49,896 bases of DNA from Sulfurihydrogenibium subterraneum DSM 15120 (GTDB lineage Bacteria; Aquificota; Aquificia; Aquificales; Hydrogenothermaceae), in the NCBI RefSeq assembly GCF_000619805.1, contig NZ_JHUV01000014.1:1-49896 (forward strand), given 5' to 3'. The position numbers and the translations under genes were made by a program. How positions within the stretch are numbered: the stretch's first letter is position 1; each line of letters starts with the position of its first letter. Under the pieces are notes generated by a model, which worked only from the letters and a program-made list of their open reading frames with translations, did no database searches and was not told where the DNA came from. Positions 3,420 to 18,255 of the stretch are shown here, piece by piece.

Positions 3420-3814
3420 ACTGATATGTCGTCTTCTGTTCCTTCTGTTCTGTCAGGACCTGCTGATTTTAGTTCGTAAGGTTTGTTAGGAGCTGGGGAT
3501 ATGTATATGTAGTCGTTATCCCAAGCGTCTTTTGGAAGTTTGTCTAAATACTGTCTCCATCTTGGTGGAATTGGTGGAGTTGTAGGTTTTTCTACAAGTG
3601 CCTTTAATCCTTGCTGGGTTGTAGGGTACATACCATTGTCTAATTTATACTGTTCTAATGCATCTTTTATAGCTTTAAGCTGGACTTTTGTAGTCTCTAC
3701 TTTTGCTTCATCTACTCTTCCTGTTATTTTTGGAACTACAAGTGCAGCAAGTAGTCCCAAGATAATAATAACCACCAAAAGCTCGATAAGTGTAAACCCC
3801 TTTTCCCTTCTCAT
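3407..3814 (-). CDS. gspG: Major pseudopilin GspG
   Basis: The main pseudopilus subunit. It carries a short basic leader (MRREKG), cleavage site G|FTLIEL and the diagnostic GspG core: MYPTTQQGL, a tryptophan-containing KDAWDNDY segment, and the C-terminal calcium-site block with SAGPDRTEGTEDDI. I chose ATG at 3814 because an AAAAGGAGA ribosome site precedes it; a longer reading from 3838 adds eight residues and would cover that site. About 135 residues, normal for GspG. It follows gspC by 13 bases and shares its transcript. Confidence 0.95.
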   Translation of the reverse strand: MRREKGFTLIELLVVIIILGLLAALVVPKITGRVDEAKVETTKVQLKAIKDALEQYKLDNGMYPTTQQGLKALVEKPTTPPIPPRWRQYLDKLPKDAWDNDYIYISPAPNKPYELKSAGPDRTEGTEDDISVWNN

Positions 3815-3827
3815 ATCTGTCTCCTTT

Positions 3828-4598
3828 TTATTCAACAAAGTAATTTAATTCTAACATTTTTCCATTTCTAAGTATAGATACTTTAAAGTTAGGTTCATTT
3901 CTTATTATCTGGAGTATTCTAAATGCATCTTCTCCAGAGTTTATCTGCTGGTTGTTTATAGCAACTAAAACATCTCCAACCTGTAGCCCCATCTTTTGAA
4001 ACAGACTTCCATCTTGTATCCAGTCAAATCTAAAACCTTTTGTCTGTCCTCCCTCTACATAAGGTATAAGTCTTATTTGAGTAAACATTATTCCTGGGTC
4101 AGCTGTAAGTCTTTCTAACTCTGACTTTGATATTTTATTAGTTGGTAGTATAGACTCAAGAGGTGGTAGATTAACAGGTGTTGAGCTATTTGGTTGATTT
4201 TTTTGAGGTTGTTTTACAGCTTCTCCTAACTTTATCTTTTTCTGCTGGTCTTTGTAGCTTATGATTATGTAGTCTTTTGATATTTTAAAAATTTTTATGC
4301 CGTTAACGGTTTGATTTTGACTTACTACGAAAGACTTTCCATCTACTTTTATAAGTGCAAAATTTTTGTATCCAATGGAAGTGGCTTTTAGCTCTAATTC
4401 TGGAAATAAACTAACCTTTTCGCCTTTCTCCTCTTTATATAGATTATTCCAATTAGATAAAATGTTTGACTTGCTTAAAAGTTCAGAATGAGTTTTAGGT
4501 ACATAATCATAATTTACATTACCTAACCAGTAAATCCCAAAAACAAGACCCAAAAAGGTCAAAAAAGAAATAAATACATTGTAGTAAACTAAATACAT
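3828..4598 (-). CDS. gspC: Type II secretion inner-membrane protein GspC with PDZ domain
   Basis: GspC links the inner-membrane platform to the GspD secretin. The 256-residue protein has one N-terminal membrane helix (about 5-25), a periplasmic homology region (about 65-125), a Pro/Gln/Asn linker, and a C-terminal PDZ domain (about 165-256) containing LQVGDVLVAINNQQINS. First gene of the leftward T2SS operon, 68 bases from the divergent gspM. A weak AGAGAGG ribosome site precedes the ATG. Sequence similarity in this family is low; the assignment rests on architecture and position. Confidence 0.88.
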   Translation of the reverse strand: MYLVYYNVFISFLTFLGLVFGIYWLGNVNYDYVPKTHSELLSKSNILSNWNNLYKEEKGEKVSLFPELELKATSIGYKNFALIKVDGKSFVVSQNQTVNGIKIFKISKDYIIISYKDQQKKIKLGEAVKQPQKNQPNSSTPVNLPPLESILPTNKISKSELERLTADPGIMFTQIRLIPYVEGGQTKGFRFDWIQDGSLFQKMGLQVGDVLVAINNQQINSGEDAFRILQIIRNEPNFKVSILRNGKMLELNYFVE

Positions 4599-4628
4599 AA
4601 TCCTCTCTTTAAAAAAGTTAATATAATT

Positions 4629-4660
4629 ATTATATACCCATCTTAAATTTGTGTTATAAT
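4629..4660. promoter_or_regulatory. Divergent promoter pair of the two T2SS operons
   Basis: The 68 bases between gspC and gspM hold a minus-strand TATAAT (4629-4634) facing gspC and a plus-strand extended -10, TGTTATAAT (4652-4660), facing gspM. Neither has a good -35 hexamer. The plus-strand -10 ends only six bases before the gspM ATG at 4667. The two promoters are so close that one bound polymerase would obstruct the other, so the two half-operons may be balanced at this site. Confidence 0.55.
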
Positions 4661-4666
4661 TTAGTT

Positions 4667-5080
4667 ATGGATTTGATTAACCAACTTAAGATAGATAAAA
4701 AATACGTTTTAATCTTGATAACTGTTTTAAACATTTTTTTACTGGTTTTAACTTATGGCAAGTATAGAGATTTTATTGGTAAGTACAACAACGAGTACTC
4801 CAAGGTTAAAGAGATGAAATTCTTATTAAACAACCGTATCCAAACAAGTTTAAAAGCAGATGAGACCTCCCTATCTCAGTTTCTTAAGTCAAAAAATTTT
4901 GAAGTAGATAGTATATATACAGGAGAAAACGGAATAGAAGTTAAATTAAAACAAGTAAATCCGTATAATTTAGTTGAAGTGATTTATGAGCTTGAAAGCA
5001 ATGGAATAAATATAAAAAACTTAAAAGCTGTTGACAATACTGGACTTGGGAAAATGAGTGTGTTTATGGTAGTCAGATGA
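4667..5080 (+). CDS. gspM: Type II secretion protein GspM-like
   Basis: A 137-residue bitopic inner-membrane protein: short cytoplasmic tail, one membrane helix (about 13-31, VLILITVLNIFLLVLTY) and a small periplasmic alpha/beta domain. This is the GspM/PilO-like architecture, and it sits directly before gspL, its usual partner. ATG at 4667 is preferred; an upstream in-frame TTG at 4649 lies within the promoter. No ribosome site is present and the expected transcription start coincides with the ATG, so the mRNA may be leaderless. Overlaps gspL by four bases. Confidence 0.8.
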   Translation: MDLINQLKIDKKYVLILITVLNIFLLVLTYGKYRDFIGKYNNEYSKVKEMKFLLNNRIQTSLKADETSLSQFLKSKNFEVDSIYTGENGIEVKLKQVNPYNLVEVIYELESNGINIKNLKAVDNTGLGKMSVFMVVR

Positions 5081-6141
5081 TAAAAAGATACTTTACGGGA
5101 ATAGATTCAGAAGGTAATACCTCAACGGTTGCCTTTGACCTGTTAAAAAAAACTTGGAATGTAGTAAACAAACAGTCTAAAAATAAAATCTACACAGTCC
5201 CAGCAGATAAGATGATTTACTTTTGGGAAAATTTACAGATAACAAACACAACCGAAGTGTTAAACTACTATAAACTACTTATAGAAGAAAGATATTCAGG
5301 ATTACAGTATGACATTTACATAGACAAAGAAAAAAACACAGTTCACATTATGGTTTTAAAAGATTTTAACATTCCAAAAGATTACTATGCCTTAGATGGA
5401 GAGATTTTTTCTCTAAAAAGATTACTTAAAATAAATAATGAAGATACTGGATATATTTTTAATTTTCAGGGAGACAAAGTAGTAGTTGTCCTTGTAGAAA
5501 ATTCAGCTATATCTTACTACAGAGTTATAAACGGAATAAAAGAGATAAACCTGATATTAGACCAGCTTCCTTTCATAGAAAAACAAAAACCGTTGTTGGT
5601 TATAGGAAATGTAGATTTAAACACTAAAAAATCACTGTCTCAGGCTCTATCTTCTTCTAAAATCGTTGAAAACAGTTATAGCTTAGCTACAGCCGTTGCG
5701 TTAAAACAAATTTTTGATAGTGATTTTCTTTCTTTTAAAAAATCCCAGATAACCAAAGAAGAACTCGAAAAGTTAAAAGTTGCAATTCTCGGATTAGTTT
5801 TAATTTATGTAGGTGCTTTTTTTACACTGTCTTACTTTTCACAAAAAGCAATAAAAAATATGAAACTGACCCAAACTAAAATATTTAAGTCCGCCTTTCC
5901 TGATATTCCAGCGGTATCACCATATCAACAGTTAAAGGCAGAAGTAAAAACATCTTTAAGTTTTGACTTGTCTAAACTTCTTTCACAAGTTAACCTGCCT
6001 CCTAACTCTAAAATTTACTCTATAGAGTACTTTGAAGGAGTTTTAACTGTAAAGGGAGAATCTCCTACAGCTCCAACCTTTGCTAAATCTGTAAAAAAAA
6101 CTCCTTCAGGAAACTTTGAATTTGAGATAGAGGTTAAATAA
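5077..6141 (+). CDS. gspL: Type II secretion protein GspL-like
   Basis: A 354-residue inner-membrane protein whose cytoplasmic N-terminal part (1 to about 225) should have the actin/FtsA-like fold of GspL that recruits GspE. One membrane helix follows (about 233-255), then a periplasmic ferredoxin-like domain to the C-terminus. Start ATGA overlaps the gspM stop and its stop overlaps the gspE start, so M-L-E are translationally coupled. GspL stabilises GspM and transmits ATPase action to the platform. Sequence conservation is weak; architecture and position make the case. Confidence 0.85.
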   Translation: MIKRYFTGIDSEGNTSTVAFDLLKKTWNVVNKQSKNKIYTVPADKMIYFWENLQITNTTEVLNYYKLLIEERYSGLQYDIYIDKEKNTVHIMVLKDFNIPKDYYALDGEIFSLKRLLKINNEDTGYIFNFQGDKVVVVLVENSAISYYRVINGIKEINLILDQLPFIEKQKPLLVIGNVDLNTKKSLSQALSSSKIVENSYSLATAVALKQIFDSDFLSFKKSQITKEELEKLKVAILGLVLIYVGAFFTLSYFSQKAIKNMKLTQTKIFKSAFPDIPAVSPYQQLKAEVKTSLSFDLSKLLSQVNLPPNSKIYSIEYFEGVLTVKGESPTAPTFAKSVKKTPSGNFEFEIEVK

Positions 6142-9589: not shown

Positions 9590-10215
9590 AGAAGGTTTTT
9601 ATAACGCTAATTACTTTAATAATATCTTTTATAATTATCCTTGCCTTTACTCCTAAGTTTTTGATAATTGATAAAATACTTATGAAAAACAAAGTTTTTA
9701 TAATGCCTGAAAGTGTATCAGAAGGTATTTTTAGTATAAACTTAAAAAAAGCAAACGTTTACTACAACGATAAATTAGTTATAAAGGATAGTGATATTGA
9801 CCTACAAATATCCCCTTTATATCAAGGACTTAATCTATTTTGTCAAAGTAAAAAATCTCAGATTTTACATAAAACCTTTGGAGGATACTACTTTAAGTTT
9901 GATAACTTTAAATGTTTAGAAGGGTTTGAAAGTGTAAACGGAGAGGTTGAGATAAAAGAAGGAGTAGTAGGAAAACTAATTTTGAAAAACTTTAAAGCTG
10001 ATAATAGAAATTTTGAGTTTTTAGAGTTTTTATTTAAAGGAAAAAGTTTTGATTTTAAAGGCAGAACCCAAGCAGTAGATATATCTGGAAGTGGTGTAGT
10101 ATCATTTGACCAGAAAAATCCTTTAAACTCTAAACTAAACGCAACAGCTTCTGCTATTGGCTTTAATTTTGTTATCTCAGGAACTATTACAAACTTACAG
10201 TTTAAAACCCAATGA
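9586..10215 (+). CDS. gspN: Type II secretion protein GspN-like
   Basis: A 209-residue protein with an N-terminal membrane anchor or signal (1-23) followed by a periplasmic beta-rich region of AsmA/LPS-transport-like character, as in the GspN family (strands around KANVYYNDKLVIKDSDIDLQ). The ATG overlaps the gspD stop by four bases and its stop overlaps gspK. GspN occurs in only some T2SS operons and its role is not settled. The family call is based on size, topology and position between gspD and gspK. Confidence 0.75.
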   Translation: MKKVFITLITLIISFIIILAFTPKFLIIDKILMKNKVFIMPESVSEGIFSINLKKANVYYNDKLVIKDSDIDLQISPLYQGLNLFCQSKKSQILHKTFGGYYFKFDNFKCLEGFESVNGEVEIKEGVVGKLILKNFKADNRNFEFLEFLFKGKSFDFKGRTQAVDISGSGVVSFDQKNPLNSKLNATASAIGFNFVISGTITNLQFKTQ

Positions 10216-11066
10216 TAGTCGTTGTAGTTTTGATGGCTTTTTTAACTTTGTCTTCTTATGTTTTACAAGCTTATCAAGATGCAGTTTCTACGTATAAGTT
10301 TATATCTTCTGTTTACAATAAACAGCAAGCTTACTACATTACAAAGTCAGCCTTTGAACTTGCAAAGTTTGCATTAGATAAAGATGACCCTTCTACAGAC
10401 ACTTTAACCGACAACTGGGCTTTACCTTTTGAGTTTGAAAAAGATTCAGTTAAAGTTAAGATAATTATTTACGATGAAAACAGATTTATAAATTTGAATA
10501 ACACAAAAGACTCAGGATACAGAAAAATTTATGAAAATCTGTTTAGAGAGCTGTATATAAAAAATGAATTACTAAAAAGAATTTACATTTGGACTGGTGC
10601 GGAAGAAGGAAGTATTCCAATAGATTATCCTGTTAAAAAAAGACCATTGGACAGTTTAGAAGAGTTGAAACTACTTGGTTTTTCAGATGACGACTTATAC
10701 GGCAAAATGGTAGGCAATAATTTCTATCCGGGACTTTTTTCTGTTTCAACAGTTTTTACAGATGGTAAGATAAACGTTAACACAGTTCCTCCAGCTGTTT
10801 TAAAAGCTCTAAATCCAAAGTTAGATGATAATTTAGTATCAAAGATAGTAGAGTTTAGAAGAAAAACACCTTTTAAGTCTGTAAATGATTTAGTTTTGGT
10901 TGATGGTTTTACATTTGATATACTTTACTCAATATCTAATTATATAGATGTAAAATCAAAAGTGTTTCACATAAAAATAGAAACGACCGTTGGAGATACA
11001 ACTCTACAGGCAGATTACATCTACAATAGAGATGAAAAAAAAGTTTTATATAAAACTTTAATCTAA
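10212..11066 (+). CDS. gspK: Minor pseudopilin GspK-like, lacking a leader peptide
   Basis: The 284-residue protein matches GspK: a hydrophobic N-terminal helix, the KAFELAKFAL-type region after it (here SAFELAKFALDKDDP), and helix-hairpin-helix blocks with GKINVNTVPPAVLKAL and VSKIVEFRRKTPFKSVNDL. GspK caps the pseudopilus tip. Unusually the coding region starts directly at the hydrophobic helix (MIVVVVLMAF); in-frame TAA lies at 10203-10205, so no basic leader or cleavage Gly can be added upstream. ATGA overlap with gspN. Last gene of the rightward T2SS operon; a transposon follows within 100 bases. Confidence 0.82.
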   Translation: MIVVVVLMAFLTLSSYVLQAYQDAVSTYKFISSVYNKQQAYYITKSAFELAKFALDKDDPSTDTLTDNWALPFEFEKDSVKVKIIIYDENRFINLNNTKDSGYRKIYENLFRELYIKNELLKRIYIWTGAEEGSIPIDYPVKKRPLDSLEELKLLGFSDDDLYGKMVGNNFYPGLFSVSTVFTDGKINVNTVPPAVLKALNPKLDDNLVSKIVEFRRKTPFKSVNDLVLVDGFTFDILYSISNYIDVKSKVFHIKIETTVGDTTLQADYIYNRDEKKVLYKTLI

Positions 11067-11161
11067 ATCTACATTCCCGGAAGTCTTGCTACTAATTACA
11101 TAAAACATACCCATTTATAATAAGTTATGCTAAAATATCATAAACTAAACAGGTTTTAAAA

Positions 11162-12664
11162 ATGAAATCCTTAAAGAATAAAGAAGAAAAGTTATATAGA
11201 GCCCTACCCTACAAACACTTTGCCAATAAATCAAAGTTAAAAACTATTCGCATACTATTTAAACTATACCAAAAAGACGCAAACACAATTTTTAAATATA
11301 TATGGGAAAAATTCATCAAATCCAAAACTCCTATAACCAAAAGAGAAAACATAAAACAAATCAAAACAATTCTATCCGAAAGATACAAATACACAATCTT
11401 TAATTACCTCGTATATCCTACCTACTCATCTTATTTAGAAATTGCAAAAAACTATATAAAAAACCTTATAACCCATTCCACACTCAGTGAAGAAAACAAA
11501 CTCCAGCTATACATATTAAACAAAAGAGGACTGTGGCTAAATCCACCAGATGAGATACAAATAAAAGTCAAAAAAGAAAACAAAGAAGAAACAAAAACAA
11601 TAAAAATATCACAACAAAACAAACACCTTATAAAAAAGCTGTTTCACAGATATTTAAAAACAAACAAAATACCCAAATTCAATAATGCTCCCTTAATAGT
11701 TGACAACAAAACAGGAGAATTTCAACAATCAAAAACAAGTAAAAAATTCAAACAATGGATAAGACTATCAACACACATAAAAAGACAAGTATTATACATA
11801 CCAGTAGAAGAGACAGATTATTACAACCAAAGAAAAGGCAAAGATACTAACATTTTTCACATAACAAAAAACGATTTAGGAACCATAGAGATAAAAAGAG
11901 TAAAAGAAATAAAAAAAGAAAATACAGACACCCAAGAAAACATAATAGCACTTGACTTTGGATTAAAATCACTATTTACAACCAACAAAGGAGATTTACT
12001 TGGAAGAAACTTTTTTGAAAAAATAAAAGAGTATGCGGATAAGATAGACAAACTACAAAGAAACTTACAAAGACAAAAAATAAATCCAAAACAAAGCAAA
12101 AGATACATAAAACTAAACTTCAAACTAAAACAATTCACTAAAAACGAGATAAGAAGAATAATAAACAGGATAGTGGAGAGATATAAACTAAGTATTATCC
12201 TTGTGGAAAATCTAAAGTATTTTCTAAAACAAGTAATAAACAAATTTCCAAATTCAGTTAAAAGAGCATTGATAAGGATTGGAAGAAAGGAAATAAAGAA
12301 TAAGCTAAAGGAAATAAGCGAGGAATATGGAATACAGGTAGTAGAGATAAATCCAGCTTACAGCTCCCAAACCTGTAATAACTGTGGATATGTAGACAAA
12401 GAAAACAGGAAAACGCAGGAAAAGTTTGAGTGTAGGTTATGCGGATACAAGCTGAATGCCGACGTGCAAGCATCAAGGAACCTTATCAAACGTTTTGATA
12501 AGGGGATGTTTGTATGTGGCAGGAAGCAAGCCCTCAGGTTGCAGATTGAAGAGTTTATAGCCAATTTGCAACTTGAGAGGTATAAGTGTCTTTGGAGTAA
12601 GGCACTCCGCTTACTCACTCAAAATCCGTATTTTAAGGGTTTGAGTGATAGTTCCTTAACCTGA
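11162..12664 (+). CDS. tnpB: TnpB RNA-guided endonuclease of an IS200/IS605-type element
   Basis: TnpB is the OMEGA RNA-guided DNA nuclease ancestral to Cas12. The 500-residue protein is complete. RuvC catalytic residues are D265 (IALDFGLKS), E349 (LVENLKYF) and D434 (NADVQASRN); a zinc ribbon lies between the last two (C405, C408, C424, C427, with TCNNCGY and CRLCGY). The N-terminal half is Lys/Asn-rich and probably RNA-binding. It is longer than typical TnpB (about 370-420) because of the N-terminal extension and a 55-residue C-terminal tail. The first two-thirds is strongly A-rich, while the last 400 bases are more balanced, as expected if the 3' end also encodes the guide RNA. No ribosome site is evident. 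Confidence 0.93.
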   Translation: MKSLKNKEEKLYRALPYKHFANKSKLKTIRILFKLYQKDANTIFKYIWEKFIKSKTPITKRENIKQIKTILSERYKYTIFNYLVYPTYSSYLEIAKNYIKNLITHSTLSEENKLQLYILNKRGLWLNPPDEIQIKVKKENKEETKTIKISQQNKHLIKKLFHRYLKTNKIPKFNNAPLIVDNKTGEFQQSKTSKKFKQWIRLSTHIKRQVLYIPVEETDYYNQRKGKDTNIFHITKNDLGTIEIKRVKEIKKENTDTQENIIALDFGLKSLFTTNKGDLLGRNFFEKIKEYADKIDKLQRNLQRQKINPKQSKRYIKLNFKLKQFTKNEIRRIINRIVERYKLSIILVENLKYFLKQVINKFPNSVKRALIRIGRKEIKNKLKEISEEYGIQVVEINPAYSSQTCNNCGYVDKENRKTQEKFECRLCGYKLNADVQASRNLIKRFDKGMFVCGRKQALRLQIEEFIANLQLERYKCLWSKALRLLTQNPYFKGLSDSSLT

Positions 12665-12705
12665 TGCATAGATAAATGTCCATATTAGAGATATTTGTCT
12701 ATGCA
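12540..12705 (+). ncRNA. Candidate OMEGA (reRNA) guide-RNA scaffold at the tnpB 3' end
   Basis: The 3' end of tnpB and the bases after it hold successive hairpins: 12595-12601 with 12610-12616 (7 bp), 12615-12623 with 12640-12648 (9 bp, competing by two bases with the first) and 12665-12677 with 12693-12705 (13 bp, one G-T pair). In characterised TnpB systems the scaffold overlaps the tnpB 3' end and the guide is transcribed from DNA just beyond the right end. Here that would be the SQR-gene flank from about 12706. The 5' boundary given is approximate. Confidence 0.45.
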
Positions 12706-12896
12706 AAAGGATACTCTTTTATAGGTATAATAACGTCTTCAAACTTTTTTTCTTTTGTAGGAATCCAGATTGATATTGGATAAATATAAAAGTAATTTCT
12801 ATCTGAGATAACTTCTACGTCAAAGTTATACTTTCTTAAAAAGATAGCAGCTTCAATACCTCCTATCCCACCACCAAGAACTACTACTTTCTTCAT
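12699..12896 (-). pseudogene. N-terminal remnant of an SQR-like FAD oxidoreductase, cut by the IS right end
   Basis: Only 65 codons remain. They encode the FAD-binding Rossmann start VVVLGGGIGGIEAA, then a DVEVISDRNYFYIYP segment and KKFEDVIIPI, all typical of the first 60 residues of sulfide:quinone reductase-like flavoproteins that normally run to about 380-430 residues. The reading frame ends at a TAG (12699-12701) inside the right-end hairpin of the TnpB element, so the stop is supplied by the transposon. No continuation is found on the other side of the element, where gspK ends at 11066. It follows the NifX-like gene by 11 bases and was probably its operon partner. Confidence 0.8.
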
Positions 12897-12907
12897 AACA
12901 ATCCCCC

Positions 12908-13270
12908 TTATTTTTTAGCTATATGTGGTGTAAGCATAAAATCTGTAGGTTGAAACTCTCTTAGTTTCCCTTCTAAAAATTGATTTATTACCTCTTTATA
13001 AGGCGCGTTTTTAGACTCTGTATAAATAGCTTTTATTCCACAATCTATTATATGTCTGTAAGCTCCTCCACCTAAGTGGTTTGTTATAACTACATTAACC
13101 TTTTCTTTTGACAAAATGTTTACAACATCTCTTCCACTTAAATGTTCATTTTCTACTATTTTAACTTCTTGAGTTTCTGTATCGTAGATAAGAAAAAATT
13201 TTGCCTTTCCAAAGGCTGGGGATAGTAAGTATTCTTCCTTCTGTGGTTTTACAGGTAGTGCTATCTTCAT
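12908..13270 (-). CDS. NifX/NifB-type dinitrogenase cofactor-domain protein
   Basis: A 120-residue single-domain protein of the NifX/NafY/NifB C-terminal family, which bind Fe-S or FeMo-co-like clusters or molybdate. Family signs are SPAFGKAKFFLIYD near the start, a central VVITNHLGGGAYRHI with the usual His and Gly residues, and the AIYTES turn. In bacteria without nitrogenase such proteins often accompany sulfur or Fe-S metabolism genes; here it preceded an SQR-like gene, now broken. GGAGG ribosome site 7-8 bases upstream of ATG. Its promoter region carries a 16-bp palindrome (13313-13328). Confidence 0.85.
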   Translation of the reverse strand: MKIALPVKPQKEEYLLSPAFGKAKFFLIYDTETQEVKIVENEHLSGRDVVNILSKEKVNVVITNHLGGGAYRHIIDCGIKAIYTESKNAPYKEVINQFLEGKLREFQPTDFMLTPHIAKK

Positions 13271-13297
13271 TTTTATTCCTCCATCTTTATTAAAAAA

Positions 13298-13328
13298 ATT
13301 ATACCACGCTAAGTTAGTATATACTAAC
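13298..13328 (-). promoter_or_regulatory. Promoter with a 16-bp palindrome over the -35 region
   Basis: On the minus strand TATAAT (13298-13303) precedes the NifX-like gene, and the position expected for the -35 hexamer lies inside a perfect palindrome, GTTAGTATATACTAAC (13313-13328). The palindrome also overlaps the stop codon of the upstream pterin dehydratase gene. A symmetric site over a -35 element is the usual layout of a repressor operator. Confidence 0.5.
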
Positions 13329-13632
13329 CTAAAATTTTTTTAAGGGATTGGTTTAATGTCTTAGCTAAATCTATATCAGCCTGAGTGATACCTCCGTAGC
13401 TATGGGTTGTGGTTGAAATTGTGATAGTTTTTGTTGCTGTGTGGAAAATAATATCTGGATGATGATTAGTCTTTTCTATTGCGTTTGCAACTTCCTTTAA
13501 GAATGCTGTTATCTTAGCCCAGTCTTCTATATAAAATCTTCTTGTAATACACTTAAACTCTAACTGCCAGTCTTCTAAATCCTCTAACGCTTTTAGAACT
13601 TCTTCTTTCGTTAAAGGTGTTTTATTTTCCAT
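13324..13632 (-). CDS. phhB: Pterin-4a-carbinolamine dehydratase
   Basis: A 102-residue cytoplasmic enzyme that dehydrates 4a-hydroxytetrahydrobiopterin (PCD/DCoH family). It carries the signature EKTNHHPDI with the two catalytic histidines, followed at the right distance by the TTHSYGGIT segment that supplies the third histidine. Length is normal. No aromatic amino acid hydroxylase is visible here; in bacteria lacking one, PCD-like proteins are often linked to molybdopterin metabolism. An AGGAGG site precedes the ATG. Confidence 0.92.
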   Translation of the reverse strand: MENKTPLTKEEVLKALEDLEDWQLEFKCITRRFYIEDWAKITAFLKEVANAIEKTNHHPDIIFHTATKTITISTTTHSYGGITQADIDLAKTLNQSLKKILG

Positions 13633-13725
13633 ATTAAACCTCCTAAAAAATATTTAAAATAAATCTAAATTTCTTTTTAAAGAAAATATATGAGCTAAAA
13701 TATAGTTTGAAACTTTGCTGTGTTT

Positions 13726-13755
13726 TATAATTAATAATGATTACTAATAAGGAGG
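13726..13755 (+). promoter_or_regulatory. Operator and -10 of the ZIP/redox operon (copy 1 of a shared 17-bp site)
   Basis: TATAAT (13726-13731) is followed at once by an 8-1-8 inverted repeat, TTAATAATGATTACTAA (13731-13747, one mismatch), and then the ribosome site AAGGAGG (13749-13755). The same 17-mer, differing only at the central base, lies in the same place before the cytochrome c peroxidase gene (17280-17296). The form resembles Fur/PerR-family 7-1-7 boxes. A TTGAAA at 13707-13712 is a possible -35, but its spacing to this -10 is short. Confidence 0.6.
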
Positions 13756-13762
13756 TTTTAAT

Positions 13763-14251
13763 ATGTTTAAAAAATTTGTTTCTGTTGTGTTGTTATTGGT
13801 AGGATTGTCTTTTGCCAGTCCTCAAGATTTAATAGGTAAGGAGTTTGTTGACTTTTATGGAAAAGATGAAAGTGGAAAAGTAGTTAAAGCATCTGATTAT
13901 GTTGGGAAAGGTAAACCAGCTGTTATAGTTTACTGGGCTATAGGAGATGTAGACACCTACAAAGTATTGCCAAAAATAAATCAGCTGTATAAAAAGTATA
14001 AAGACAAAGTTATTTTCATAGCCCCACTTCTTAGTGTATCTAATCCAAAGGAAATTAAAGAGGCTAAAAAGTTTATTCCTATAGATATGCCTGTATGGCT
14101 TGCTGGTAGTGATTCTATAAAAGGATACTCTATTGAAAAAGTAGACGTTCCATATCTGGTATTTATTGACAAAAACGGAAACATTGTAGATGTAATGACT
14201 ACGGCAAGGGATATTAAGAAAATAGAAGAAAACATTAAAAAGCTACTGTAA
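13763..14251 (+). CDS. Exported TlpA/thioredoxin-like protein without cysteines
   Basis: A 162-residue protein with a cleavable signal (about 1-18, LVGLSFA|S) and a thioredoxin/TlpA-like fold: VIVYWAIGDVDTYK occupies the place of the WATWCxxC active site, and a cis-Pro loop is present (VDVPYLVFIDKNG). The two active-site cysteines are replaced by D62 and T65 and the whole protein has no Cys, so it cannot be a redox thioredoxin. A binding or chaperone role in the periplasm is inferred. First gene of a six-gene operon behind the shared operator; its stop overlaps the ZIP gene start (TAATG). Confidence 0.85.
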   Translation: MFKKFVSVVLLLVGLSFASPQDLIGKEFVDFYGKDESGKVVKASDYVGKGKPAVIVYWAIGDVDTYKVLPKINQLYKKYKDKVIFIAPLLSVSNPKEIKEAKKFIPIDMPVWLAGSDSIKGYSIEKVDVPYLVFIDKNGNIVDVMTTARDIKKIEENIKKLL

Positions 14252-15021
14252 TGGAAATAACAGTATTAGCTATTGCTGGAAGCTTCTTATCAGGATTAGC
14301 TACGGTTTTTGGTATTTTGCCTATACTTTCAGGTAAAAAAGTATCTCCTGTAATGCAGGACGTTCTTTTAGGATTTAGTGCAGGGATTATGCTCTCTGCA
14401 TCTTTTTTTTCTTTGTTGAATCCAGCTATTGAGATGGCAAACAATATCTTTGAAAACCATTTTTCAATTTTTATAGTTTCTATTGGTTTACTTACAGGGG
14501 CAGTTGTATTTTTAATCGCTGACAAGTTTATCCCAGAAGATTACTTTATAAGGATATATGAAAACTCTGACAGTAAAGCGTTAAAGAAGATGTGGCTTTT
14601 TATACTTGCAATCACGATTCATAACTTTCCAGAAGGAATGTCTTCATCTCTTGGATTTTTAACAGGAGATGTAGGAAAAGGAATATCTCTTGCAACAGGT
14701 ATTGGAATTCAGAATATTCCAGAAGGCTTAGCGGTAGCTTTGGCACTGTATTTAAACAACTTTTCAAAAAAAGATATATTTTTAATAACCTTGTTAACAG
14801 GAATAGTAGAGCCTATAGGTGGAGTTGTTGCGGTTTTACTTTTTTCTATATCCCATTACATTTTACCAGTAGGACTTTCTTTTGCTGCTGGAGCTATGCT
14901 TTTTGTAGTCAGTAAAGAGATGATTCCTCAAACTCATAAAAAAGGTTTTGAAACACAGGCTACTTTTGGATTAATGTTTGGATTTGTTGTAATGATGGTT
15001 TTAGATAACTTGTTTGGTTGA
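14251..15021 (+). CDS. ZIP-family metal transporter, GufA-like
   Basis: A 256-residue inner-membrane protein with about eight helices that imports divalent metals (Zn, Fe, Mn). The binuclear metal site is visible: HNFPEG in helix 4 (H124, N125, E128) and QNIPEG in helix 5 (Q154, N155, E158). The Gln in place of the second His is the arrangement of the GufA/bacterial-ZIP subfamily rather than ZupT. Overlaps the thioredoxin-like gene, and a cysteine-rich miniprotein follows 13 bases later, suggesting coordinated metal uptake under the upstream operator. Confidence 0.93.
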   Translation: MEITVLAIAGSFLSGLATVFGILPILSGKKVSPVMQDVLLGFSAGIMLSASFFSLLNPAIEMANNIFENHFSIFIVSIGLLTGAVVFLIADKFIPEDYFIRIYENSDSKALKKMWLFILAITIHNFPEGMSSSLGFLTGDVGKGISLATGIGIQNIPEGLAVALALYLNNFSKKDIFLITLLTGIVEPIGGVVAVLLFSISHYILPVGLSFAAGAMLFVVSKEMIPQTHKKGFETQATFGLMFGFVVMMVLDNLFG

Positions 15022-15033
15022 AGGAGGTTTGCT

Positions 15034-15174
15034 ATGGAAATTTTAACTTACTTAGTTTTAGGTGTTATAGTCGCTTGGTCTGGATACTACATTTTTAAGA
15101 AAGTAAAAAATGACATTAATAAAGGAAAATGTGGAGCTTGTAGTTTAGGGTCTGATTGTGGTAAGGAAAAATAA
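15034..15174 (+). CDS. 46-residue FeoB-associated-type Cys-rich membrane protein
   Basis: A tiny protein, MEILTYLVLG at its start, with one membrane helix (about 3-22) and a basic linker ending in a cysteine motif, CGACSLGSDCGKEK (C33, C36, C42). This matches the FeoB-associated Cys-rich membrane protein type, which normally sits next to the ferrous iron transporter FeoB. Here it follows a GufA-like ZIP transporter instead. AAGGAGG lies 7 bases before the ATG, and the stop overlaps the next ATG (TAATG), so it is clearly translated. Metal binding by the cysteines is inferred. Confidence 0.85.
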   Translation: MEILTYLVLGVIVAWSGYYIFKKVKNDINKGKCGACSLGSDCGKEK

Positions 15175-15461
15175 TGAGAAAGCTATCTTTATATATTGCA
15201 ATTATTCTATACGCTGTGTTTATTATAGAAGCTATAACAGGCTATTGGATTGAAAAACCAAGAACAGTTGGAAGTATATTTTCTAATATTTTAGACAGAA
15301 AAGATGCCTATGTTATCCACGCTTACATCTTCCCTGTTTTACTTTACGGTCTTATTCTTTTTCATACAACTATTACTTTGAAAAGATTTTTCAATATTTA
15401 TGTAGTTTTGGGATTAAATACATTAATACTTTTGTTTTTGCTAACTTTACATATTCTTTGA
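15174..15461 (+). CDS. Small three-helix membrane protein, possible b-type cytochrome
   Basis: A 95-residue protein with three membrane helices (about 5-25, 47-68, 75-94). H49 and H64 lie on the second helix 14 residues apart, a spacing compatible with heme b ligation, and H93 ends the third. It immediately precedes a Tat-exported molybdopterin oxidoreductase; such enzymes commonly pair with a membrane heme protein (as in the MsrP-MsrQ pair), so it may be its quinone-linked anchor. No clear family recognised; the heme role is inference. Confidence 0.7.
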   Translation: MRKLSLYIAIILYAVFIIEAITGYWIEKPRTVGSIFSNILDRKDAYVIHAYIFPVLLYGLILFHTTITLKRFFNIYVVLGLNTLILLFLLTLHIL

Positions 15462-15471
15462 GGTTTTAGCT

Positions 15472-16170
15472 ATGAAAAGGAGAAATTTTCTAAAAATTAT
15501 CAGTTTATCTTTAATATTTCCAAACCTTTCATTTGCTGGATTGTTAGATTACTTTAAAAAGTCAAAACAGGAGCTCCCTCCAGAAGGTAAGTACACGCCA
15601 GAAGATAAACTGTTTATAGTTGATATAAAAGGTGTTCCTTCACAGGTAAAAAATTTGGATTTAAAAGAGTATAGATTAAAAGTTTATGGAAAAGTTAAGA
15701 ATAGCGTTTCTCTAAGTTTAGATGAGATAAAATCTTTAAAATCTGTTGAAAGAGATGTAGTATTAGAATGTGTGTCAAATGTGAGAGGAGATAAAATCGG
15801 AAGAATAAAAGTAAAGGGAGTTTTATTAGAAGACATACTACATATTGTAAATCCAGATAAGACAGCCAAAGAAGTAGTATTTAGGTCTTTTGATGGTTAT
15901 CATACAAGCATAGAATTAGATTACCTGAAAAATTATCATCCTTTAATAGTTTACGGAATAAATAAAGATGAAGATGGAAAAGTTATAAAAGATTTGTCAT
16001 TAGACCACGGTTATCCCTTGAGAGTTATCTGTCCAGAAAAGTGGGGTTATAAATCTGCAAAATGGCTAAAAGAGATAGAAGTTGTAGATCATGATTATAA
16101 AGGTTATTGGGAAAAATCTGGCTGGAGTGATAGAGCATTAAGAAGAGTTGATTATTTTGATGTTAAATAG
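15472..16170 (+). CDS. Tat-exported sulfite oxidase-family molybdopterin oxidoreductase
   Basis: A 232-residue periplasmic enzyme. The N-terminus has a twin-arginine signal (KRRNFLK, then a hydrophobic stretch ending SFA|G), as needed for export of a folded cofactor enzyme. The Mo-binding domain of the sulfite oxidase/MsrP family is complete: LECVSNVRG with C100 as the likely Mo thiolate ligand, DGYHTSI, and LDHGYPLRVICPEKWGYKSAKW near the C-terminus. No dimerisation or cytochrome domain, so electrons must pass to a partner such as the preceding membrane protein. The substrate is unknown (sulfite, a sulfoxide or other). It ends just before a strong terminator. Confidence 0.9.
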   Translation: MKRRNFLKIISLSLIFPNLSFAGLLDYFKKSKQELPPEGKYTPEDKLFIVDIKGVPSQVKNLDLKEYRLKVYGKVKNSVSLSLDEIKSLKSVERDVVLECVSNVRGDKIGRIKVKGVLLEDILHIVNPDKTAKEVVFRSFDGYHTSIELDYLKNYHPLIVYGINKDEDGKVIKDLSLDHGYPLRVICPEKWGYKSAKWLKEIEVVDHDYKGYWEKSGWSDRALRRVDYFDVK

Positions 16171-16172
16171 AT

Positions 16173-16201
16173 AAAGGGGGCTTACCAAGCCCCCTTTTTG
16201 T
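16173..16201. terminator. Bidirectional terminator between convergent operons
   Basis: An 11-bp perfect stem (16173-16183 with 16187-16197, GC-rich core of five G-C pairs) closes a 3-base loop and is followed by T's on the plus strand, with A's before it giving T's on the minus strand. It lies between the molybdopterin oxidoreductase and the convergent peroxidase gene and should serve both. Confidence 0.88.
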
Positions 16202-16202
16202 T

Positions 16203-17264
16203 TTATATTCTAGGTTTTGGTGTTTTTGGAGAAGATGGTGGTAATACTGGCATTTTTAATGCATCTTCTGGGATTTTTCCAGTTGTAGAGTCTAAGAATG
16301 CAACTATTTTATCTATTTCCTCATCAGTTAAGGTTATTCCAAGCTGAGTTTCTCCCATTATCTTAACAGCTTCTCTTATGTCCCACACTTTTCCATCGTG
16401 GAAGTAAGGATAAGTTCTTGTTACGTTTCTTAAAGAAGGAACTTTGTAAACATATTTATCAGCTTCATTTTTGGTTACGTTGTATCTTCCTAAGTCGTTA
16501 GGGTCTTGGTACGGATAAGGTTTAACTACACCAAACTTTTGGAACATAGTTCCACCTATAGCCACTCCGTTATGGCAAGAAGCACAACCTTTCTCCATAA
16601 AAAGCTTCAAACCTTCTTTCTCTTTCTGAGTTAATGCTTTTGTATTACCTTTTAAAAATTCGTCGAATCTTGAAGGTGTTACTAAAGTTCTTTCAAAAGC
16701 AGCTATTGCCTTTGCTACGTTGTCATAGTTAACAGGGTCTTTTTCGTTAGGGAATGCTTTTTTAAATTCTGCTACATAACCTTCTATAGTTTTTAATCTT
16801 TCTATTACAAGGTTAGGGTCTGGCATTGACATTTCAAGTGGATTGAGGATAGGTCCTTTTGCTTGTTCTTCAAGGGTTTTTGCCCTTCCATCCCAGAATT
16901 GAGCTATGTGGAATCCAGCGTTTAAAACTGTTGGAGCGTTTTTACCACCTGTTTGGAACTTATGTCCCAAAGAAGTTTCAACTCCATCAACTCCGTAAGT
17001 TGCTAAGTTGTGGCAAGTATTACAGCTTATAACTCCACTTAAAGAAAGTCTTGGGTCGTAGTAAAGCATTTTACCAAGCTGAACTTTTTCTTTAGTTGTA
17101 GGATTATCAGAAGGAGCTGGTATTTCTTTAGGTAATGGTTGGAAATAATTCTTTGCTTGATTTAAAAGGTCTTTGTCGTTAATTTTTTGCTGTGCCACAG
17201 TATAACCAGCTATTGAACCAACAGCTACCAAAGCAGATAGAGCCATTACTGATAACTTTTTCAT
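16203..17264 (-). CDS. ccpA: Di-heme cytochrome c peroxidase
   Basis: A periplasmic CcpA/MauG-family peroxidase that reduces H2O2 with electrons from cytochrome c. I use ATG at 17264 (353 residues); a GTG one codon earlier is the alternative. A signal peptide covers about 1-25, and two heme c sites are present: CNTCH (C81, C84, H85) and CASCH (C227, C230, H231). The WDGR segment and the C-terminal YFHDGKVWDIREAVK are typical. Transcribed from a near-perfect sigma-70 promoter overlapped by the shared 17-bp operator, consistent with peroxide- or metal-responsive control. Confidence 0.95.
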   Translation of the reverse strand: MKKLSVMALSALVAVGSIAGYTVAQQKINDKDLLNQAKNYFQPLPKEIPAPSDNPTTKEKVQLGKMLYYDPRLSLSGVISCNTCHNLATYGVDGVETSLGHKFQTGGKNAPTVLNAGFHIAQFWDGRAKTLEEQAKGPILNPLEMSMPDPNLVIERLKTIEGYVAEFKKAFPNEKDPVNYDNVAKAIAAFERTLVTPSRFDEFLKGNTKALTQKEKEGLKLFMEKGCASCHNGVAIGGTMFQKFGVVKPYPYQDPNDLGRYNVTKNEADKYVYKVPSLRNVTRTYPYFHDGKVWDIREAVKIMGETQLGITLTDEEIDKIVAFLDSTTGKIPEDALKMPVLPPSSPKTPKPRI

Positions 17265-17279
17265 CACTGAACCTCCTTA

Positions 17280-17327
17280 TTAGTAATAATTATTAATAAT
17301 TATAAACCTTAAACTCTACCTTGTCAA
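17280..17327 (-). promoter_or_regulatory. Peroxidase promoter with overlapping operator (copy 2 of the shared site)
   Basis: Read on the minus strand: TTGACA (17322-17327), 17-base spacer, TATAAT (17299-17304), then the inverted repeat TTAATAATTATTACTAA (17280-17296) that covers the expected transcription start, and TAAGGAGG just after it. The 17-mer equals the site at 13731-13747 except for its central base. A site just downstream of -10 implies repression. Fur/PerR-type binding is inferred from the shape and from the peroxidase target. Confidence 0.7.
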
Positions 17328-17396
17328 ATTTAAAAACTGCTTTTAATTATCTATTGTATTGTAAAATATTTTTAGTTTATTGGGAGGACTAAGAAA

Positions 17397-17804
17397 ATGC
17401 CACTAACCATACCAGTGGAGTTGTATGAAAAGCTTGCAGAGAAGTTAGGCAAAGAAACTGCGTTAGAAGTAGTAAAAGTATTTGAAGAAACTCAAAAACA
17501 GCTTGAAGATAAAGTAGTCGAAGAAACTAAAAAAAGAAAAATTGAACTTAGAGACGAACTTAGAAAAGAGTTAGCCACCAAAGAAGACATACTATTGACC
17601 AGACAAGAAATCGAATTAGTCAGACAAGAGATTGAAACTGTAAGGCAAGAGCTGAAAGGTGAGATTGAAACTTTAAGACAAGAAGTAAAAGGAGAGATAA
17701 AAGTTTTAAAAATGTGGATAATTGTTTTAGGTATCTTAATGGTTGCATTAAATCAAAACTCTTTGGAGCTGATTTTGAGAATAATTTTTGGAAATATCAG
17801 ATAG
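17397..17804 (+). CDS. Coiled-coil protein with C-terminal membrane anchor (paralog 1)
   Basis: A 135-residue protein in three parts: a helical N-terminal domain with IPVELYEKLAEKLGKETALEVV (about 1-33), a long charged coiled coil (about 34-107) rich in RQEIE and LRQEVKGEI repeats, and a C-terminal membrane helix (WIIVLGILMVAL, about 110-125). The layout is like DUF1640/CCDC90-type proteins; function unknown. GGGAGG precedes the ATG. First gene of the operon that continues through cmk and ychF. The next gene is a near copy. Confidence 0.8.
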   Translation: MPLTIPVELYEKLAEKLGKETALEVVKVFEETQKQLEDKVVEETKKRKIELRDELRKELATKEDILLTRQEIELVRQEIETVRQELKGEIETLRQEVKGEIKVLKMWIIVLGILMVALNQNSLELILRIIFGNIR

Positions 17805-17814
17805 AGGTGTTTAA

Positions 17815-18255
17815 ATGCCATTAGCTATACCAGTGGAGCTGTATGAAAAGCTTGCAGAAAAGTTGGGTAAAGAAACTGCGTTAGAAGTAGTAAAAGTATT
17901 TGAAGAAACTCAAAAACAGCTTGAAGATAAAACAGTAGAAGAAACTAAAAAAAGAAAAATTGAACTTAGAGACGAACTTAGAAAAGAGTTAGCCACTAAA
18001 GAAGATATACTATTGACCAGACAAGAAATCGAATTAGTCAGACAAGAAATTGAAACTGTAAGGCAAGAGCTGAAAGGCGAAATTGAAGCTTTGAGACAAG
18101 AAGTAAAGGGTGAGATAAACGCTTTAAGGCAAGAGGTAAAAGGAGAGATAAAAGTTTTAAAAATGTGGATAATTGTTTTAGGTATCTTAATGGTTGCACT
18201 CAATCAAAACTCTTTGGAGCTGATTATGAAAATCATTTTTGGAGCTGTTAAATAA
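17815..18255 (+). CDS. Coiled-coil protein with C-terminal membrane anchor (paralog 2)
   Basis: A tandem duplicate of the preceding gene, almost identical through the first 90 residues, but 146 residues long: the coiled coil contains one additional 11-residue unit of the LRQEVKGEI type (33 bases), giving three in a row instead of two. The membrane anchor is kept. It starts 10 bases after paralog 1 and its stop overlaps the next ATG. Differences between the copies are mostly silent, indicating recent duplication or gene conversion. The two products could form hetero-oligomers; function unknown. Confidence 0.8.
   Translation: MPLAIPVELYEKLAEKLGKETALEVVKVFEETQKQLEDKTVEETKKRKIELRDELRKELATKEDILLTRQEIELVRQEIETVRQELKGEIEALRQEVKGEINALRQEVKGEIKVLKMWIIVLGILMVALNQNSLELIMKIIFGAVK

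What the first reader, a model, noticed from the sequence alone, without database searches (positions are those of the whole stretch)
11162..12896. TnpB element truncates an SQR-like gene and supplies its stop codon
The 65-codon SQR start ends at a TAG within the 13-bp hairpin at the element's right end, and the missing 3' part is not on the left side, where gspK ends. Simple insertion by TnpA leaves both halves next to the element, so a deletion or rearrangement between element copies must have followed. If functional SQR exists elsewhere, this may be a harmless loss; if not, sulfide oxidation is changed.
Basis: partly seen in the sequence, partly recalled or inferred. Interest (0 to 1): 0.6.

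Follow-up and report, generated by a model that had tools for sequence, protein, structure and literature searches.

The report
Mobile element replaced a gene's middle
A small mobile DNA element carrying a TnpB nuclease gene sits where the middle of a sulfide-oxidase-like gene used to be, with the gene's first 60 codons on one side and its last few on the other; this is a neat but ordinary gene loss caused by a mobile element, and an intact sulfide-oxidase-like gene remains elsewhere in the genome.

Summary
The truncation is real; one key premise of the finding is wrong. The element is 11086-12716 (1631 bp): a TnpB-only, IS200/IS605-like element with no Y1 TnpA in the genome. Three empty sites in relatives show that it inserts after GTC and ends in ...GATACTC. 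The 65-codon ORF is 60 native codons plus five read from the element's right end (E-Y-P-F-A), then a TAG in the right-end hairpin. The gene's 3' end is not missing from the left side: 11069-11085 (CTACATTCCCGGAAGTC) is its last codons and stop, next to gspK, as in two relatives with the full 388-codon gene. Only the interior is gone (about 970 bp; found nowhere else in the genome). Both ends lie at target sites of the old gene: GTC|TTGG at the 3' end, and GTC|TTTTATAGG at codon 60 in the closest relative. So the deletion ran exactly between two target sites. Two same-direction copies in one gene followed by recombination explains this best; a TnpA joining of two target sites, or assembly collapse of two copies, is not excluded. 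An intact, better SQR homologue remains on another contig, and another near-complete congener also lacks this gene, so the loss is probably tolerated. Ordinary in kind.

The parts
10212..11066 (+). gspK-like gene (type II secretion K), convergent neighbour of the lost gene
   Evidence: Pfam T2SSK E 4e-9; homologous and adjacent to the full SQR-like gene in G001 and G003
11069..11085 (-). 3' remnant of the SQR-like gene, last 17 nt including stop (codons for ..LPGM*)
   Evidence: Same sequence ends the full gene in G001; one or two differences in G003 and G004
11083..11085 (+). Target site GTC at the element's left end (site 2, in the gene's 3' end)
   Evidence: GTC precedes all seven other copies with a readable left end; native GTC at the same place in G001, G003, G004
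11086..12716 (+). TnpB-only IS200/IS605-like element, TTGCTAC...GGATACTC, 1631 bp
   Evidence: Ends set by comparison with seven copies and three empty sites
11162..12664 (+). tnpB, 500 aa, RuvC and zinc-ribbon motifs present (D265 in ALDFG, E349 in VENL, D434 in NADVQ; CNNC, CRLC)
   Evidence: Pfam Cas12f1-like_TNB and OrfB_IS605 over cut-off; NCBIfam guided_TnpB 101.5 bits, cut-off 100; motif positions
12580..12716 (+). Right end, likely scaffold of the TnpB guide RNA, overlapping the tnpB 3' end (5' limit approximate)
   Evidence: Conserved as DNA across copies, also in a copy in G004 that lacks tnpB; role by analogy to ISDra2 reRNA (PMC8612924)
12666..12704 (+). Right-end hairpin
   Evidence: Strand folding; sequence
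12699..12716 (-). Element-derived tail of the truncated ORF: E-Y-P-F-A and the TAG stop
   Evidence: Sequence; the right end read backwards in this phase gives E-Y-P-x-A-stop, also seen as ..EYPSA at another copy
12717..12732 (+). Right flank, first 16 nt, which would be the guide of the TnpB RNA
   Evidence: Position after the right end; inferred from ISDra2 (PMC8612924)
12717..12896 (-). First 60 native codons of the SQR-like gene (FAD-binding start)
   Evidence: 92% identity over residues 1-62 to the 388-aa protein of G004; Pfam Pyr_redox_2; native GTC|TTTTATAGG at this point in G004
12908..13270 (-). NifX-like gene upstream of the truncated gene, syntenic with G004
   Evidence: Pfam Nitro_FeMo-Co; collinear match 12715-18254 to G004

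Best explanation
An SQR-like gene of 388 codons was invaded by a TnpB-only IS200/IS605-like element that inserts after GTC. The present element joins two different target sites of that gene: its left end follows GTC in the last codons, its right end precedes the sequence that followed GTC at codon 60. The 970 bp between were lost. The simplest route is two copies in the same direction at the two sites, then homologous recombination between them, which leaves one element and removes the interior plus one copy. Shown: element ends, target motif, both remnants, absence of the interior. Inferred: GTC at codon 60 in this lineage (from G004), and two copies plus recombination rather than another element-driven route. 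The remnant is probably a dead gene, and the loss is probably tolerated.
For: Three filled/empty pairs in G025/G027 fix the insertion point after GTC and the 3' end GATACTC. The left flank is the gene's native 3' end, with GTC in G001, G003 and G004. The right flank begins at the base after a native GTC in the closest relative, G004; only 12 GTC occur in the 1167 bases of that strand of the gene, so about 1% by chance. Four congeners carry the full gene, none a 65-codon form. The interior is absent from the genome. Flanks appear to have been exchanged between copies at least once: in G027, 22 bp of one G025 copy's left flank, ending in GTC, is joined to the right flank of another G025 copy that is 98.7% identical to it.
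Against: No second copy remains to show that two ever existed, and two insertions in one 1.2-kb gene is unlikely a priori for an element of low copy number. G001, G003 and G005 have no GTC at codon 60, so the right-hand target site rests on G004 alone. No Y1 TnpA is found in this genome, so the mobilising enzyme is unknown.
Confidence: 0.5

Rival explanations
1. One element, one aberrant TnpA reaction: during insertion or partial excision on single-stranded DNA, TnpA cut two GTC sites of the gene and joined the left end to one and the right end to the other, releasing the DNA between.
For: Both ends are exact and both sit at target sites. Needs one insertion only. 970 nt could lie within one single-stranded stretch of the lagging-strand template (general knowledge). 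TnpA cuts and joins single strands at such sites (PMC2806898, PMC8612924).
Against: None of the three filled/empty pairs shows it. No report of it was found for this family in the papers searched. No TnpA in this genome.
Confidence: 0.25
2. Assembly collapse: the living genome has two copies in the gene with the interior between them, and the assembly merged the copies and dropped the interior.
For: The assembly has 16 contigs; the interior (about 970 bp) is short enough to be filtered out; the junctions would look exactly as seen.
Against: Nothing of the interior is in the held contigs. The contig is otherwise collinear with G004 on the right and with G001/G003 on the left.
Confidence: 0.12
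3. Deletion first: slippage between the GTCTT repeats at codon 60 and at the 3' end deleted the interior, then the element inserted at the remaining GTC.
For: GTCTT occurs at both native sites in G004, and the product would be the same.
Against: Requires the element to hit the very junction of an unrelated deletion, among the many GTC sites of a 1.6-Mb genome (0.7% of positions per strand in the window). No relative with the deletion alone.
Confidence: 0.05
4. Ordinary flank deletion: a simple insertion at the 3' end, later followed by a random deletion that happened to stop at the right end.
For: Two bases (TC) are shared at the joint, as in end joining.
Against: The right end is kept to its last base, and the joint falls at a native GTC in G004, which chance would rarely give.
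Confidence: 0.06

Closest known systems
IS200/IS605 elements with tnpB (ISDra2, IS608), tnpB-only subgroup often called IS1341-like
   Same: No target duplication, insertion 3' to a fixed short motif, right-end hairpin, TnpB with RuvC and zinc-ribbon motifs, right-end DNA conserved beyond the coding need.
   Different: Target motif GTC rather than TTGAT or TTAC; no tnpA in the element and no Y1 transposase in this genome.
Gene deletion by recombination between two same-direction insertion-sequence copies
   Same: One element left, flanks from two sites, DNA between them lost.
   Different: Small scale (970 bp inside one gene), and the second copy is inferred, not seen.
Sulfide:quinone oxidoreductase family (Aquifex 3HYV; Acidianus protein 3H8I)
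   Same: The full-length protein of relatives matches both at E 1.6e-24.
   Different: Only 60 codons remain here; the family's reaction was not tested, and the relatives' protein is well below NCBIfam's SQR type III cut-off.

Membership tests
IS200/IS605 (TnpB-only) | TnpB protein with OrfB/RuvC core and zinc ribbon | tested here: met
   Pfam and NCBIfam over cut-off; solved Cas12f/TnpB chains matched
IS200/IS605 (TnpB-only) | Insertion 3' to a fixed short motif without target duplication | tested here: met
   Three empty sites, GTC before all copies
IS200/IS605 (TnpB-only) | Subterminal hairpins at the ends | tested here: inconclusive
   Strong at the right end; weak fold at the left end
IS200/IS605 (TnpB-only) | Mobilised by a Y1 HUH TnpA | tested here: inconclusive
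   No Y1_Tnp in this genome or in G001-G004 and G006; present in G005 and in two pieces in G025
IS607 | TnpB of the IS607 group | tested here: not met
   NCBIfam IS607_TnpB 40 bits against cut-off 350
Sulfide:quinone oxidoreductase | Full-length FAD/NAD-type fold, as in relatives | tested here: not met
   Only 60 of 388 codons remain at the start and under 6 at the end
RNA-guided nuclease TnpB | Guide RNA from the right end and cleavage next to the target motif | not testable with these tools
   Catalytic motifs and conserved right end only

The most novel reading that the evidence does not exclude
IS200/IS605 transposition can join its two ends to two different target sites on the same single strand, inserting and deleting in one step, so that genes are removed exactly from target site to target site without two copies.
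Probability: 0.2. Interest if true: 0.5.

Novelty: new member of a known kind. Interest (0 to 1): 0.25.

Why it matters
It is a clean, base-resolved case of an element with TnpB removing the inside of a gene from one target site to another. It also yields a target motif (GTC) and exact ends for this element group in Aquificota, which can be used directly in a TnpB cleavage assay. The excision product of the present element would be GTC followed by its own guide match, so the TnpB-guided retention proposed for ISDra2 (PMC8612924) would still work after the deletion.

Tried and rejected
The gene interior was sought in the own genome by protein and not found. A second copy of the element was sought and not found. 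Rfam gave only chance matches. I first read the left junction as TTGCTA shared with codon 63 (microhomology); the copies and empty sites showed instead that TTGCTA is the element's own left end. I first took GTCTT as the target; the empty site in L097 (GTCCT) reduces it to GTC. Whether other copies had lost the DNA between two target sites could be checked for three copies only; all three are simple insertions. Paper searches for adjacent deletions in IS608/IS605 found none.

Full report
What is there. The window is contig C14 of a genome of 16 contigs in the genus of two records named Sulfurihydrogenibium (L043 and L045, whose contig lengths equal G001:C36 and G003:C37). TnpB (500 aa, 11162-12664 +) passes the Pfam and NCBIfam cut-offs. 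It keeps the RuvC aspartates and glutamate and the zinc-ribbon cysteines. An ORF of 65 codons runs from 12896 down to a TAG at 12699-12701, which lies in the right-end hairpin.

Ends of the element. Copies in G001, G004, G025 and G027 share a right end that finishes ...GGGATACTC, and those with a readable left end begin TT(G/T/A)GC or TTGC followed by AACTAG or GAC(T/C)AG after GTC. Three sites have an empty counterpart: L082/L097, L088/L098 and L072/L107. In all three the empty site reads GTC followed directly by the right flank, without duplication. So the element inserts after GTC, begins with TT and ends with GATACTC; in the window it is 11086-12716, 1631 bp.

The gene on both sides. In G001 and G003 a full 388-codon gene lies convergent to gspK, and the window matches them through gspK to 11088. 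The window reads CTACATTCCCGGAAGTC at 11069-11085; G001 has CTACATTCCCGGAAGTC at the 3' end of its gene, G003 CTACATTCCGGGCAGTC and G004 CTACATTCCTGGGAGTC. On the right, native sequence starts at 12717 (TTTTATAGGTAT...), 60 codons from the start. In G004, the closest relative at this locus (86% DNA identity over 5.5 kb), the bases before it are GCAAGGTC, so this too is a GTC target site. G001, G003 and G005 have no GTC there. Twelve GTC occur in 1167 bases of this strand in G004, so the match is about a 1% chance event. The five residues E-Y-P-F-A and the stop are the right end read backwards; another copy gives a host ORF the tail ..EYPSA. The stop codon is thus a fixed property of the right end in that reading phase, not something special to this gene.

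What was lost. The two GTC sites are 970 bp apart in G004. A search of the own genome with residues 61-388 finds only a distant homologue (E 0.0012).

How it came about. Both ends are exact and both sit at target sites, so the loss was most likely driven by the element. Two copies in the same direction, at codon 60 and at the 3' end, followed by homologous recombination, give exactly this product. Support from elsewhere: copies L081 and L093 of G025 are 98.7% identical, and in G027 the last 22 bp of L093's left flank including GTC are joined to L081's right flank without an element. So flanks appear to have been exchanged at element copies at least once; in which genome, and by which route, is not settled. 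A TnpA reaction that joins two target sites, assembly collapse of two copies, or a prior deletion between GTCTT repeats would leave the same sequence and cannot be separated from the window alone. No Y1 TnpA is in this genome or in G001-G004, although seven TnpB-type loci are in this one; mobility would need an enzyme from elsewhere, or one since lost.

Consequence. The full protein of relatives matches Aquifex SQR (3HYV) and the Acidianus protein 3H8I equally (the organism names are from memory). This genome keeps a 498-codon ORF on C12 (searched from its internal ATG, 473 aa) with a stronger match to solved SQRs (E 7e-42). It also keeps a 424-codon SQR/flavocytochrome-like ORF on C9. G002, listed as 100% complete, has only the C12-type homologue. 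So the gene is dispensable in the genus, and there is no sign that sulfide oxidation as such was lost. Activity of any of these enzymes was not tested.

TnpB after the deletion. By the ISDra2 model (PMC8612924) the guide is the right flank and the target motif is the left flank. Excision of the present element would give GTC|TTTTATAGG, a motif with the matching guide target, so guided retention would still operate. This is inference.

Strain names. The lengths of G004 (1,640,877) and G005 (1,838,442) match, from memory, S. azorense Az-Fu1 and Sulfurihydrogenibium sp. YO3AOP1; the tools did not name them.

Noticed in passing
L157 (G000:C9:11500-19500), 3554-5863: A second SQR/flavocytochrome-like gene of the same genome is split by another transposase gene (288-codon frame): 291 codons end ..KKKIITEQYLE on one side and the rest resumes KKKIITEQ.. 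on the other, a simple insertion that looks to have a target duplication. G004 has an intact 442-codon ORF of this type beside the same conserved neighbour.
   Followed up: partly
L073 (G004:C1:1077257), 1501-1691: A right end of this element group, conserved as DNA to GATACTC, without a tnpB gene, next to a different transposase gene; possibly a guide-RNA-only remnant.
   Followed up: no
L127 (G027:C1:1672500-1675500) against L129 and L130 (G025): Flanks of two element copies appear exchanged: 22 bp of one copy's left flank, ending in GTC, is joined to the other copy's right flank, with no element between.
   Followed up: partly
L130 (G025:C1:458500-465000), 2141-2563: The right end of an element copy gives a small host ORF a new tail ..GWEYPSA and stop, where G027 has ..SWDS; the same E-Y-P-x-A tail as in the window.
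   Followed up: partly
G000, contigs C8, C9, C11, C14: Seven TnpB-type loci but no Y1 TnpA in the genome.
   Followed up: partly
window 17397-18254: This stretch matches G004 at several overlapping positions, which suggests repeated or duplicated sequence there in G004.
   Followed up: no
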